Program-made: the position numbers and the translations under genes
Part shown: positions 4,320-31,173 of the stretch, piece by piece
How the letters are laid out: each line of letters starts with the position of its first letter
Numbering within the stretch: position 1 is the stretch's first letter
Notes under the pieces: model-generated
What the model saw: only the letters and a program-made list of their open reading frames with translations
Database searches by the model: none
Told to the model about the DNA's origin: nothing
Assembly (NCBI GenBank): GCA_021789915.1
Contig: JAJYIV010000011.1
Coordinates: forward strand, 1 to 36,134
Length of the DNA stretch: 36,134 bases
From: a bacterium
Lineage (GTDB): Bacteria > Patescibacteriota > Patescibacteriia > UBA9934 > GWF2-40-263
Reading direction: 5' to 3'

Positions 4320-4346
4320 GTCCGTCGCGCGCGACGGACTTTTTTG
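4320..4346 (+). terminator. Terminator of the 3944-4300 gene
   Basis: GTCCGTCGCG and CGCGACGGAC form a perfect 20-base palindrome followed by six T residues. Element A inserted only a few bases downstream of the T-run. Confidence 0.9.
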
Positions 4347-4352
4347 TAACGA

Positions 4353-4507
4353 GACCTCCGAAAAACTGATGGATTTTCGTTGTCAGCCAAAGGCTGATCA
4401 GCCTCTGGCTGAAATGGGCTGCCGAGCCCCGCGAACCCTACTCAAACGTAGGGAGAGCGGGGTCGGCGGGCGCCCATGAGACGAAAAGACGCAGTCTTGC
4501 AGAGGTC
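4353..4507. mobile_element. Element A, copy 1: 155-bp MITE-like element
   Basis: This segment starts GACCTCCGAAAAACTG and ends with the imperfect inverted copy (reading in from the right end: GACCTCTGCAAGACTG), giving terminal inverted repeats of roughly 30 bp with mismatches. A second copy at 29913-30066 is about 95% identical, with differences concentrated at the ends. The interior holds a 28-bp palindrome around GGCTGATCAGCC and a longer GC stem (GCCGAGCCCCGC / GCGGGGTCGGC) with an inner ACCCTAC/GTAGGG stem. The flanks are TGTAACGA on the left (4345-4352) and TCTAACGA on the right (4508-4515), an imperfect 8-bp direct repeat consistent with a target duplication. No coding capacity is convincing. 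It looks like a non-autonomous miniature transposable element. Confidence 0.82.
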
Positions 4508-4541
4508 TCTAACGAAATTCCGCCTTGCGGCGGATGGTTCG

Positions 4542-13635: not shown

Positions 13636-13669
13636 CTGTCGAAACCGGTAGGATTCAGCAAAGCCACCG

Positions 13670-13749
13670 GCTGTCAGCCTTCAGCCCTCAGCTCGCGTTC
13701 CCTCCTGACGGCTGACAGCTGATGGCTGAAGGCTGATGGCTGATGGCTG
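13670..13749. repeat. Degenerate 7-bp array (GGCTGAT-type) before metG
   Basis: The right half is a run of heptamers of the type GGCTGAT/GGCTGAA/GGCTGAC. The left half carries the reverse complement (CTGTCAGCCTTCAGCC), so the transcript could fold into a long imperfect hairpin. The array ends five bases before the MetRS start codon. Similar arrays lie before 29097 and 29509. Confidence 0.8.
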
Positions 13750-15281: not shown

Positions 15282-15366
15282 CGTCATTGCGAGCGCAGCG
15301 AAGCAATCCTGCCGCCCGTGGTGAAAGATTGCTTCGTCGTTCGCGGACTTGCTCCTCGCAATGACG
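15282..15366. repeat. 85-bp palindromic repeat, CGTCATTGCGAG family
   Basis: The ends CGTCATTGCGAG and CTCGCAATGACG are perfect inverted copies. A second inner pair (AGCGAAGCAATC / GATTGCTTCG) makes a long imperfect hairpin. The unit fills the gap between metG and the CvpA-like gene. Related units lie at 15882-16008 and, inside a coding region, at 26323-26413 and 27986-28088. Confidence 0.85.
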
Positions 15367-24125: not shown

Positions 24126-24153
24126 CCCCGTCGCATCGCGGCGGGGATTTTTT
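24126..24153 (+). terminator. Terminator of MetRS number 2
   Basis: CCCCGTCG and CGGCGGGG pair (one G-U pair, five-base loop) and are followed by a run of six T residues. Confidence 0.88.
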
Positions 24154-24169
24154 GCAGAGGTCTCTGTAC

Positions 24170-25567: not shown

Positions 25568-25642
25568 GCTAGGAGAGCGGCGCCCGCGCGTCAAGCGCGC
25601 GCGGCCTTTTGCTTTTCGCCCCATGCGGTATCCTGTTCGCGC

Positions 25643-25809
25643 TAGGGGTCTATTCCCGAATGCCGCATTCGGGAGATCGCAAGCACGGGCGAGCGAGCCG
25701 TCGTCGAAAAAACGCAGGTGTGGCAGAGCCACATCGAGGTTTTTCCGACAAGGCGCAGCCGCCTGTGCGTGGCAAGATCCCAATGTCGGTATTCGGGAAT
25801 AGACTCCTA
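25643..25809. mobile_element. Element B: 167-bp hairpin element before the helicase gene
   Basis: The left end TAGGGGTCTATTCCCGAAT and the right end, read inward, TAGGAGTCTATTCCCGAAT differ at one base. The inverted similarity continues inward through almost the whole element (for example TCGAAAAAACG / TCGGAAAAACC and GGTGTGGC / GATGTGGC), so the segment is one long imperfect hairpin with a small apical loop at GGCAGAGCC. No target duplication is obvious. The final A of the element is the first base of the ATG of the helicase gene. Confidence 0.82.
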
Positions 25810-28800
25810 TGGCCAACCTGCTTGAGCATGCCAATCCGGAGCAGCTTGCGGCCATCACGCACCGCGAGGGGCCGCTCATGATCGTCGCCGGCGCCGGCAC
25901 CGGCAAGACCAGCGTCATCACGCAGCGCATCGCGTGGCTTATCGAACAAGGGCTCGCGAAGCCCGAGCAGATTCTCGCGCTCACGTTCACCGACAAGGCG
26001 GCGGGCGAGATGGAGGAGCGCGTGGACCTGCTGCTGCCGTTCGGCTACGTCGACCTGCAGATCTCCACCTTCCACGCCTTCTGCGAGAAGCTGCTGCGCG
26101 CGTACGGCGCGGAGATCGGCCTGTCGCGCGACTTCACGCTGATGCCGGAGCTCGACGCGTGGCTGCTCGCGCGCCAGCAGGTCGGCCGCTTTGCGCTGGA
26201 CCATTATCGGCCGCTCGGCAACCCGACCAAGTTCCTGCGCGCGCTGCTCGCGCATTTTTCGCGCTGCAAGGATCTTGGCGTGACGCCGGAAGCGTATCGG
26301 GCGTTCGTCGAGCGCCGCTTCCCGTCATCGAGAGGGTCCGCCGGCGGCGACGCGATCCCGTCTCCGCCGGATGGGAGCAGGACGGCGCCGTCCTCGGCTC
26401 GCCGTGACGAGGAAGAAAGCGAACGCAAGCGCCTGTCCGAGCTCGCGAACGCCTACGCGGCCTATCAATCCGTCCTGCAGGAGCACGACGCCGTCGATTT
26501 CGGCGACGTGATGATGTACGCGCTGGACCTGCTGCGCCGGCGCCCGCGCGTGCTCGCCGACGTGCGCGAGCGCTACCGCTTCGTGCTCGTCGACGAATTC
26601 CAGGATACGAATGCCGTCCAGTACGAGCTGGTGAAGCTGATCGCCGCGCCGCGCGACAACCTGACCGTCGTCGGCGACGACGACCAGGCCATCTACGCCT
26701 TCCGCGGGGCGTCGCTCGCGAACATCCTTCGGTTCCAAACGGATTTTCCGACGGCGGAAAAAATCGTCCTCACGCGCAATTACCGATCCGGCCAAGCGAT
26801 CCTGGACACGGCGCATCGCCTCATCCAGGCGAACAATCCGCATCGCCTGGAAGCGCAGGACGAGCGCCTGTCGAAACGGCTCGTGTCGCAGCGCGAAGGG
26901 CGGGGGAGCGTGGAGCATCTGCCGTTCGCGTCGCTGGAAGACGAAGCGGTCGGCGTCGCGAACAGGATCCTGGCCCTGAAGGAAGCGCATCCGGACGCGG
27001 CCTGGAGCGATTTTTGCATCCTCGTGCGCGCCAACGACGCGGCCGACGCCTTTCTCGGCCCGCTCGAGCGCGCGGGCATCCCGTTCCGCTTCCTCGCGCT
27101 GTCGGGCCTGTACGCCAAGCGCGCGCTGCTGGATGTGCTGGCCTTCCTGCGCGTGATCGACAACCCGTTCGACGGCCCGAGCTTCTACCGCCTGCTGGCG
27201 ATGCCGCTGCACGGCGTGCCGGCGGACGCGGTGGCGCGGCTGTCGCACGTGGCGAACCGGAAGGGGAAGTCGCTGGGCGAGGCCGCCGCGATGGGACGCG
27301 CCGCGGGCGCGGTGCAGGGCGAGGCGGCGGACCGCGTGGAAGGGCTGCTGGCGTTCCTCGCGCGCATGCGCGCGGAAGCGACGCGGCGCCCGATCGGCGA
27401 GCTGTACGTCCTCGTCGCCAAGGAAAGCGGTTATCTCGCCTGGCTGAACGGGCGCGGCGAGCGGGAAAAGCGCGACGAGTTCAATTATCTGCAGCAGTTC
27501 TATCAGCGCGTGAAGCGCTTCGAAGAGCGGCACGACCATCCCGTCCTTCGGCACTTCCTGGAGGAGTTCGCCTTCGAGCGCGACGCCGGCGAGGACGGTG
27601 CGCTCGTGCACGACGTCGAAGCCGGGCCGGACGTCGTCCACGTGATGACGGTGCACGCGTCCAAGGGCCTGGAGTTCCGCTTCGTGTTCGTCGTATCGAT
27701 GGTGGACCGGCGTTTTCCGTCGCAGGCGCGGGCGGAAGCGATCCCGCTGCCGGAAGGGTTGGAAGGGGATGAAGGGTCGGAAGGGGTTCAATCGAGCGCC
27801 GAGCGCCGAGCGCCGAGCGCCGCCGACCCCGCCACGGCCCACCTCGAAGAAGAACGCCGGCTGTTTTACGTGGCCGCGACGCGCGCCAAGGAGGCGCTGT
27901 TCCTGACGTGGGCGGAGGATTACCGCGGAACGCGCAAACGCAAGCCGTCGCGCTTCCTGACGGAGCTCGGATATCAGATCTCGCCCTCGTCATCGCGAGA
28001 AGCCGCAGGCGACGACGCGATCCTGCAGCCGGACGGGAGCGGGACTGCTTCGTCCCGCCCGCCTGGAGGCGGGACTCGCGATGACGAGCAGGAAGACCAC
28101 CTCGTCATCCAAATCCCGAAGCAGTTCTCCTTCACGCAGCTCGTCGCCTTCGCGAGCTGTCCGCTCCAGTACGAATTCGCGCACGTGCTGAAGATCCCCG
28201 TCTTCGGCAAGCGGCAGATGTCCTTCGGCAAGACGATGCACAACACGCTGCAGCATTTCTTCGAGCGCTGGTTGGAACGGACGGGCGCGCGGCAAGCGAA
28301 CCTGTTCGACGCCGCGGCCGCCGTCTTCCCCCCGGCCCCATCCGCTGACGCGGACGGGGAGGCCGCGGGACGCGCGGCGCCGGTGTCGCTCGAGGAATTG
28401 GAAGCGCTGTACGCCGAGCATTGGATCGACGACTGGTATCCCGACGACGCGGCGCGCGAAGAGTACCGCGCGCAGGGGCTCGCGAGCCTGCGCGCCTATT
28501 ACGCGCGGGTGAAGAAGGCGCCGCCCGACGTGCTGGCGCTGGAACAATCGTTTACGTTGAAGATCGGAGACGTCGCCTTGAAGGGCCGCATCGACCGCAT
28601 CGACCGGTGCGGGGACGGCGTAGAGATCATCGACTACAAGACGGGAACGCCCAAGACGGAAGCCGACCTCAAGAAAGACCGGGGCAAGCGCGAACAGCTG
28701 TACCTGTACCAGCTGGCGGCCGGACGCGTCCTCGGCATGAAGGTTGAAAAGCTGACTTTCCATTATCTCGAGGACGACTCCACGGTGTCGTTCCTGGGGA

Positions 28801-29901: not shown

Positions 29902-29912
29902 CATCCACAGGG

Positions 29913-30066
29913 GACCTCTGAAAAAATGATGGATTTTCGTTGTCAGCCAAAGGCTGATCAGCCTCTGGCTGAAATGGGCTGCCGAGCCCCGCGAACCCTA
30001 CTAAACGTAGGGAGAGCGGGGTCGGCGGGCGCCCATGAGACGAAAAGACGCCGTTTTACAAAGGTC
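29913..30066. mobile_element. Element A, copy 2: 154-bp MITE-like element upstream of mreB
   Basis: It is the same element as at 4353-4507, in the same orientation, with a single-base deletion near ACTAAACG and about six substitutions, mostly in the terminal repeats. The ends are GACCTCTGAAAAAATG and, read inward from the right, GACCTTTGTAAAACGG. The flanks CCACAGGG (29905-29912) and CCACAGGA (30067-30074) form an 8-bp direct repeat with one mismatch. It separates the small membrane protein gene from mreB. Confidence 0.85.
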
Positions 30067-30120
30067 CCACAGGACAAAAAACCGACGAGGTGATAAGGTC
30101 GCGGCGACGCATTTTTTCCT

Positions 30121-31173
30121 GTGTTCAACCGCCTCTTCGGACGATTCTCGAAGGATCTCGGCATCGATCTCGGGACCTGCAATACCCGGGTTTTTTCGCG
30201 CGAGAAGGGCATCGTGATCCAGGAGCCGTCCATCGTGGCCGTCAACAGCCGGACGGAGCAGATCGTGTCCGTCGGCGCGGAAGCCAAGGACATGATCGGC
30301 AAGACGCCGCCGCACATCCGGGCGATCAAGCCGCTGGTCAAGGGCGTCATCTCGGATTTCGAGATCAGCGAAAAGATGATCAAGTACTTCATCGACCGGG
30401 TGCACGCGGAATCCTTCACCCTGGTTCCGCGCCCGCGCATCGTCATCGGCGTCCCCCTGGAGACGACGGAGGTGGAACGCAAGGCGATCGAGGACGTCGT
30501 CACGGCCGCCGGCGCGCGCGAAGTCGTGCTGGTCGAGAATCCCATGCTGTCCGCGATCGGCGCGCGCCTGCCGGTCACGGAATCGGTCGGCACCATGATC
30601 GTCGACCTGGGCGGCGGCAAGACGGAGATCGCCGTGCTGTCCCTGGGCGGCGTCGTGACGTGGAAATCGCTGCCGATCGCGGGCGACGAGCTGAACCGCA
30701 ACATCATCCAGTACGCCCGCGACCTCTTCAACCTGCTGCTCGGCGAGAAGAACGCCGAGCAGGTGAAGATGCGCATCGGCACGGCCGTCCCCGGCGACGG
30801 GCCGATGCAGATCGAGATGCGCGGACGGGACCTCATCACCGGCCTGCCCAAGGAGATCCTCGTCAATGACGGGCAGATCCGCGAAGCCATGCAGCGGTCG
30901 ATCGGCACCATCGTCGACAGCGTCCGCGCCGCGATCGAAAACACGCCGCCGGAGCTCGTCGCCGACATCTACGAGCGGGGCATCGTGCTTACGGGCGGCG
31001 GCTCGCTGCTCAAGGGGATGGACGCCCTCGTCTCGCGGCAGGCGCAGATCCCCGTGCGCGTGGCCGAGGACCCGACGGCCTGCGCCGTGCGCGGCGCCGG
31101 CGCGCTCCTGGAACAGGAGGACGTCCTGCGCGACGTCGCCCTGCCGTCGGCGACCAAGGGGGGGATCGTATGA
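30121..31173 (+). CDS. mreB: Rod-shape protein MreB
   Basis: This 350-residue actin-like ATPase forms membrane-associated filaments that guide cell-wall synthesis. The phosphate-1 loop is DLGTCNTRVF (usually DLGTANT), the connecting region is TEVERKAIEDVVTAAGAREVVLVENPM, phosphate-2 is DLGGGKTEIAVLSLGG, and the adenosine motif is IVLTGGGSLLKGMD. The substitutions VENPMLSAIGARLPV and GGGKTE are departures from the common VEEPMAAAIGAGLPV and GGGTTE. It starts with GTG at 30121, with no ribosome-binding site, 54 bases after element A copy 2. It overlaps mreC by four bases, as the first gene of mreB-mreC-mreD-PBP2. Confidence 0.96.
   Translation: MFNRLFGRFSKDLGIDLGTCNTRVFSREKGIVIQEPSIVAVNSRTEQIVSVGAEAKDMIGKTPPHIRAIKPLVKGVISDFEISEKMIKYFIDRVHAESFTLVPRPRIVIGVPLETTEVERKAIEDVVTAAGAREVVLVENPMLSAIGARLPVTESVGTMIVDLGGGKTEIAVLSLGGVVTWKSLPIAGDELNRNIIQYARDLFNLLLGEKNAEQVKMRIGTAVPGDGPMQIEMRGRDLITGLPKEILVNDGQIREAMQRSIGTIVDSVRAAIENTPPELVADIYERGIVLTGGGSLLKGMDALVSRQAQIPVRVAEDPTACAVRGAGALLEQEDVLRDVALPSATKGGIV

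What the first reader, a model, noticed from the sequence alone, without database searches (positions are those of the whole stretch)
4345..4515. Element A copy 1: miniature element with inverted ends and an 8-bp target repeat
A 155-bp segment with ~30-bp imperfect terminal inverted repeats is nearly identical to 29913-30066, 25 kb away, and is flanked by TGTAACGA and TCTAACGA. Both copies show an 8-bp flanking repeat with exactly one mismatch, which strongly supports transposition. The interior is highly structured (28-bp palindrome plus a nested GC stem). No transposase is in the window, so the element would depend on one elsewhere.
Basis: partly seen in the sequence, partly recalled or inferred. 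Interest (0 to 1): 0.7.

Follow-up and report, generated by a model that had tools for sequence, protein, structure and literature searches.

The report
Hairpin mini-transposon with ISNme1-type ends
This is a real small parasitic DNA element that has no genes of its own and moves with a borrowed transposase (4-base target duplication, not 8); what is unusual is that its inside is a conserved folded hairpin with repeated G-A mismatch motifs, a pattern also seen in similar elements of several unrelated bacterial groups.

Summary
Two ~95% identical copies (4351-4509 and 29911-30068) belong to a multi-copy family in a 1.06-Mb genome whose family-level relatives are Candidatus Uhrbacteria. They are MITEs. 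The ends read GRGACCTCYGMAAAA, like those of the published IS5-family elements ISNme1 and ISPg1 and their MITEs. The target duplication is 4 bp (TAAC; ACAG), not 8: 24 of 48 comparable elements in this class show exactly 4; relatives in other phyla show 5. Two empty sites in relatives confirm movement. Full IS with these ends and an IS5/IS1182 transposase exist in relatives; no cognate transposase was found in this assembly. (1) The ends are a vehicle: in this genome they enclose at least three unrelated interiors, all hairpins. (2) The hairpin type shows strong covariation (24 of 50 pairs with double changes; 0 of 500 shuffles) and three near-invariant tandem G-A loops on one strand. GA/GA makes up 90% of 2x2 loops in this class, 52-75% in Desulfobacterota and Neisseria, about 1% in random quasi-palindromes. 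No Rfam family matches. Why the fold is conserved is open.

The parts
4351..4509 (+). MITE copy 1 (159 bp); + is the strand with the GA/GA loops
4347..4350 (.). target duplication TAAC, left of copy 1
4510..4513 (.). target duplication TAAC, right of copy 1
4351..4367 (+). left end GAGACCTCCGAAAAACT (GAAAAA type)
4493..4509 (-). right end, GAGACCTCTGCAAGACT read on the - strand (GCAAAA type)
4372..4373 (+). tandem-GA loop 1, 5' side (partner 4488-4489)
4488..4489 (+). tandem-GA loop 1, 3' side
4383..4412 (+). inserted pair of 15-bp palindromes TCAGCCAAAGGCTGA + TCAGCCTCTGGCTGA, inside GA loop 2 (G4382 | A4413, partner GA 4478-4479)
   Evidence: absent in L008 and in the aligned relatives from other genomes
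4478..4479 (+). tandem-GA loop 2, 3' side
4433..4434 (+). tandem-GA loop 3, 5' side (partner 4455-4456)
4455..4456 (+). tandem-GA loop 3, 3' side
29911..30068 (+). MITE copy 2 (158 bp), upstream of mreB (30121-31173)
29907..29910 (.). target duplication ACAG, left of copy 2
30069..30072 (.). target duplication ACAG, right of copy 2
29943..29972 (+). same pair of 15-bp palindromes in copy 2
24150..24164 (-). solitary element end GAGACCTCTGCAAAA without a partner, next to a terminator-like hairpin

Best explanation
A type-II MITE: a non-coding cassette with the terminal inverted repeats of ISNme1/ISPg1-like IS5-family elements (relatives up to IS1182). It is mobilised in trans by a DDE transposase that recognises GRGACCTCYGMAAAA and makes 4-bp target duplications in this lineage. 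Shown here: the shared ends, the target duplications, multiple copies, complete IS with these ends in relatives, filled/empty sites in relatives, and no detectable cognate transposase in this assembly. Inferred: that the transposase was lost, is unassembled, or was present only for a time. The interior is not a deleted transposase gene. It is a hairpin cassette whose stems covary and whose three tandem G-A loops are kept on one strand, so folding of that one strand (as RNA or as single-stranded DNA) is probably under selection; this last step is inferred. The window copies additionally took up a 30-bp double palindrome.
For: Copies in the genome. Exact 4-bp duplication in 24/48 elements of this class with TC ends, none of 5 or more; 50/89 with exactly 5 bp for TT ends in other phyla; 3/7 with 6 bp for GT ends here; chance for 4 bp is 1/256. 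Empty sites: N. dentiae element inside an IS5-type transposase gene, AGGCT|element|AGGCT against a single AGGCT in five N. weixii copies; L167 against L201 with CCTT. Complete IS with these ends: L111, IS1182 model NF033551 at 351.6 bits; G024:C33, 1340 bp, same family; N. weixii about 1.1-1.2 kb with 5-bp duplications AAGCC, GGCCT. Published ends: ISNme1 GAGACCTTTGCAAAA and ISPg1 GAGACCATTGCA, both IS5 (PMC4596501). Conserved fold: 24/50 pairs with double changes against 12.3 in shuffles, 98 cells against 25, 0/500; loops GA/GA in 24/25, 20/25 and 22/25; about 1% in random quasi-palindromes.
Against: No empty site was found for the window's own two insertions. No cognate transposase was found in the window's assembly (no PF05598; the two PF01609 transposases there carry other ends). 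About half the elements have no exact duplication, consistent with age or recombination but not shown. The complete IS in the same family (G024) has no clean duplication. The window copies show only one GA/GA loop in unconstrained minimum-energy folds, the 30-bp insert lying inside loop 2.
Confidence: 0.93

Rival explanations
1. A structured non-coding RNA (or an mRNA leader/trailer hairpin) that is merely repeated; the fold is the function and the mobility is incidental.
For: Strong covariation with one-strand tandem-GA loops; G-T outnumber A-C mismatches on the GA strand, 45:15 and 57:12, when pairs are taken from that strand's fold.
Against: Duplications, filled/empty sites and IS-type ends show transposition. 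Orientation between flanking same-direction genes is 21 sense to 16 antisense, no clear bias. No Rfam match (the only weak hit lies outside the element). No promoter-like site at the two copies. The G-T excess vanishes when pairs come from the other strand's fold.
Confidence: 0.2
2. The covarying stems are a by-product of palindrome correction (template switching) in a hairpin-forming DNA; there is no selection on the fold. This rival concerns the interior only, not the MITE reading.
For: Long quasi-palindromes are known to be corrected (general knowledge); all unrelated interiors in the genome are hairpins too.
Against: Correction should erase the mismatches or leave them of mixed kind and strand; instead GA/GA is near-invariant and on one strand only in virtually every element.
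Confidence: 0.25
3. An independent element with 8-bp target duplications.
For: 7 of 8 flanking bases match at both copies if the ends are drawn 2 bp inside.
Against: Across 48 elements of this class the duplication is 4 bp when exact, never 8.
Confidence: 0.02
4. A REP/REPIN-type element moved by a Y1 (HUH) transposase.
For: Small, palindromic, intergenic, many copies.
Against: Real target duplications and DDE-type IS ends; REP elements make none (general knowledge).
Confidence: 0.01

Closest known systems
ISNme1 and the N. meningitidis ATR repeat (type-II MITE proposed for it); cited in PMC4596501
   Same: Ends GAGACCTTTGCAAAA / TTTTGCAAAGGTCTC; MITE with IS ends and an unrelated interior; IS5-family parent
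   Different: Different interior (ATR is AT-rich, by its name; not compared here); Neisseria elements found here have 5-bp duplications against 4 bp here; no parent found in this genome
BrickBuilt and MITEPgRS/MITE464 of Porphyromonas gingivalis (PMC4596501), parents ISPg1/ISPg4/ISPg9
   Same: GAGACNNTTGCA-type ends, IS5-family parents, unrelated interiors sharing one kind of end
   Different: Interiors hold tandem repeats (23 or 41 nt), not a tandem-GA hairpin of about 130-160 bp; their duplications were reported as uneven
IS1182 / IS5 family insertion sequences (NF033551, NF033581)
   Same: L111 (IS1182) and L088 (IS5_4) transposases lie next to these ends
   Different: They carry the transposase; only about 15-18 bp of the ends are shared with the MITE
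ERIC, Correia and Rickettsia palindromic elements
   Same: Short, palindromic, repeated
   Different: Other ends and other parents (general knowledge; not compared by sequence here)

Membership tests
Bacterial MITE (non-autonomous DDE element) | A few hundred bp at most, no transposase gene | tested here: met
   159 and 158 bp, too short to hold a transposase gene
Bacterial MITE (non-autonomous DDE element) | Terminal inverted repeats | tested here: met
Bacterial MITE (non-autonomous DDE element) | Target site duplication of constant length | tested here: met
   4 bp exact in 24/48 of the class
Bacterial MITE (non-autonomous DDE element) | Empty site with a single target copy | tested here: met
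   Met for two elements of relatives; not testable at the window's own sites
MITE of ISNme1/ISPg1-like IS5 elements | Ends match the parent IS | tested here: met
   GRGACCTCYGMAAAA here; GAGACCTTTGCAAAA in ISNme1 and GAGACCATTGCA in ISPg1
MITE of ISNme1/ISPg1-like IS5 elements | Complete parent IS with these ends in the lineage | tested here: met
   G024:C33 in the same family, L111 in the same class
MITE of ISNme1/ISPg1-like IS5 elements | Parent transposase in the same genome | tested here: not met
   No PF05598 in G000; its two PF01609 genes have other ends. Not a strict requirement; the assembly is 95.6% complete, so absence is not proven
MITE of ISNme1/ISPg1-like IS5 elements | The parent transposase acts on this element | not testable with these tools
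   needs a transposition assay
Known structured RNA (Rfam) | Match to a family model | tested here: not met
REP/REPIN (Y1 transposase) | No target duplication | tested here: not met
   duplications present

The most novel reading that the evidence does not exclude
The hairpin punctuated by tandem (probably sheared) G-A pairs is a conserved nucleic-acid module, carried by ISNme1-type ends in Patescibacteria, Desulfobacterota and Beta-/Gammaproteobacteria, whose folded single strand (RNA or single-stranded DNA) is bound by a protein or otherwise does a job that keeps these MITEs successful; the ends are exchangeable vehicles for hairpin cassettes.
Probability: 0.3. Interest if true: 0.72.

Novelty: new variant of a known kind. 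Interest (0 to 1): 0.5.

Why it matters
MITEs are usually read as decayed IS whose interior does not matter. Here the interior keeps its fold and its G-A loops while the sequence turns over, and similar loops occur in elements of distant phyla, which suggests that the folded strand itself is used. It also shows one kind of transposon end carrying several unrelated hairpin cassettes in a reduced Uhrbacteria-like genome. I found no paper in the searched library on MITEs in Patescibacteria.

Tried and rejected
8-bp duplication: rejected by the survey. Exact pattern scan of viral contigs for a short-gap form: no match. DNA similarity in plasmids: none. Rfam: none (weak chance hit outside the element). 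The two PF01609 transposases of the own genome as drivers: rejected, other ends (by eye GGCTTTGTTGCA type and GAGTAGTGCTAG type). Orientation bias relative to genes: no clear bias, with a home-made gene caller. G-T/A-C strand asymmetry: suggestive, but depends on which strand's fold defines the pairs. A last relatives search for GAGACCGTTG elements used too short a gap and is uninformative.

Full report
What is there. Copy 1 lies at 4351-4509 and copy 2 at 29911-30068 of the window, about 95% identical. The window is contig C12 of a 1.06-Mb, 95.6%-complete genome. Same-family genomes G013 and G004 have contigs of the same lengths (281,942; 168,708; 414,343 bases) as public Candidatus Uhrbacteria records JACRJU010000013, JAHFIQ010000003 and JAHFIQ010000001, so the host is taken to be Uhrbacteria or near it (inference).

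Ends and target duplication. Across the copies sequence identity stops at GRGACC...GGTCYC. With these ends the flanks of copy 1 are TAAC/TAAC and of copy 2 ACAG/ACAG. In a survey of all paired-end elements held, 24 of 48 with TC-type ends in this class show an exact 4-bp duplication and none 5 or more; elements with TT-type ends elsewhere show exactly 5 bp in 50 of 89; GT-type ends here show 6 bp in 3 of 7. Different end variants and lineages thus go with different duplication lengths, which suggests more than one transposase (inference; the GT sample is small).

Proof of movement. In Neisseria dentiae (L234:1915-2035) an element with these ends interrupts an IS5-type transposase gene as AGGCT|element|AGGCT; five N. 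weixii copies of that gene have a single AGGCT and no element. In Desulfobacterales L167 the site CCTT|element|CCTT is a single CCTT in L201. These are relatives, not the window's own sites.

The parent. A relic of an IS5_4-type transposase (NF033581, PF05598 + PF01609) sits next to such an end in G011. A complete 1340-bp IS with ends GAGACCACTGCAAAACTC...GAGTTTTGCAGTGGTACT and PF05598/PF01609 is in G024 of the same family. L111, same class, is a complete IS of the IS1182 model (351.6 bits, cut-off 270) with ends GAGACCTCTGAAAAA. N. weixii has IS of about 1.1-1.2 kb with GAGACCTTTGCAAAA-type ends and 5-bp duplications. The literature gives the same kind of ends for ISNme1 and ISPg1 (IS5 family) and for the P. 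gingivalis MITEs BrickBuilt and MITEPgRS (PMC4596501, Table 2). In the window's own genome no PF05598 is found and the two PF01609 transposases have other ends. Only 1 of 43 family genomes and 4 of 381 class genomes match the relic protein, while 18 of 60 relatives carry the ends and 26 of 286 class genomes the hairpin: in assemblies the MITEs are far commoner than their possible parents.

One vehicle, several cassettes. In this genome the same ends enclose (i) the hairpin of the window copies, (ii) GTCATTGCGAG...GAAGCAATCC palindromes, (iii) GTGTCATCC...GGATCAC palindromes. GTCATTGCGAG palindromes also occur without these ends, for instance in the window at 15283-15365. All 23 interiors tested are hairpins stronger than their shuffles (mean z -6.7, flank controls -0.3). 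The N. dentiae element likewise encloses the palindrome ATTCCCGCGTAGGCGGGAAT, which looks like the Neisseria dRS3 repeat (from memory, not tested).

The window copies' extra arm. Between G4382 and A4413 lies TCAGCCAAAGGCTGA TCAGCCTCTGGCTGA, two 15-bp palindromes. TCMGCCNNNGGCKGA occurs at 37 places (control 0), repeatedly as such head-to-tail pairs outside these elements. L008 and the aligned relatives from other genomes lack the insert, so it probably came later; L022 has a pair of other sequence at the same place.

The conserved fold. In 25 hairpin-type elements 24 of 50 pairs have changes on both sides (shuffled 12.3), 98 cells (shuffled 25), paired cells 96.6%; no shuffle of 500 reaches these values, and sliding the partner by 1-3 columns drops pairing to 37-49%. 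The caution that relatedness inflates such numbers applies. Three 2x2 internal loops are GA/GA in 24/25, 20/25 and 22/25. In minimum-energy folds GA/GA makes 57 of 63 2x2 loops in this class, 109 of 209 in the 140-143-bp elements (mostly Desulfobacterota), 9 of 12 in Neisseria, and about 1% (49 of 4806) in random quasi-palindromes. The strand was chosen as the one with more GA/GA, but the opposite kind was almost never found within the same element. An all-purine 2x2 loop sits 20-24 nt from the end in Uhrbacteria, Desulfobacterota, Neisseria and a gammaproteobacterium. Whether the groups share the hairpin by descent or converged is open.

What the fold is for. Gene orientation gives no clear bias (21 sense, 16 antisense between same-direction genes), there is no promoter-like site at the copies, no Rfam match, and the G-T excess on the GA strand is only suggestive. 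I therefore do not call it an RNA gene. The most that can be said is that folding of one strand is probably kept by selection.

Verdict. A well-supported MITE with ISNme1/ISPg1-like IS5-family ends, not described for this lineage in what I could search, with an unusual conserved tandem-GA hairpin interior.

Noticed in passing
window 25641-25810: Another palindromic element with different ends (TAGGGGTCTATTCCCGAAT... / ...ATTCGGGAATAGACTCCTA; arms of 53 nt, 72% complementary).
   Followed up: no
window 15283-15365: GTCATTGCGAG...GAAGCAATCC palindrome without GAGACC ends; about 20 places in the genome.
   Followed up: partly
window 13662-13748: Inverted arms made of repeated GGCTGA/TCAGCC words (32 nt, 84% complementary).
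   Followed up: no
window 24150-24164: Solitary element end directly after a terminator-like hairpin; similar unpaired ends at G000 C21:18281 and C23:2975.
   Followed up: partly
G000 genome (e.g. L003, L029, L061, L063): 15-bp palindrome TCMGCCNNNGGCKGA at 37 places, often as exact head-to-tail pairs; also a recurrent palindrome CCCCGCCTGCATGCAGGCGGGG.
   Followed up: partly
L061, L063, L143, L316: Elements with GAGACCGTTG-type ends show 6-bp duplications against 4 bp for GAGACCTCTG ends in the same lineage.
   Followed up: partly
L263 (G000:C22:17227): An IS with GGCTTTGTTGCA-type ends and an apparent 9-bp duplication GACTTGGTC, apparently inside a coding region.
   Followed up: no
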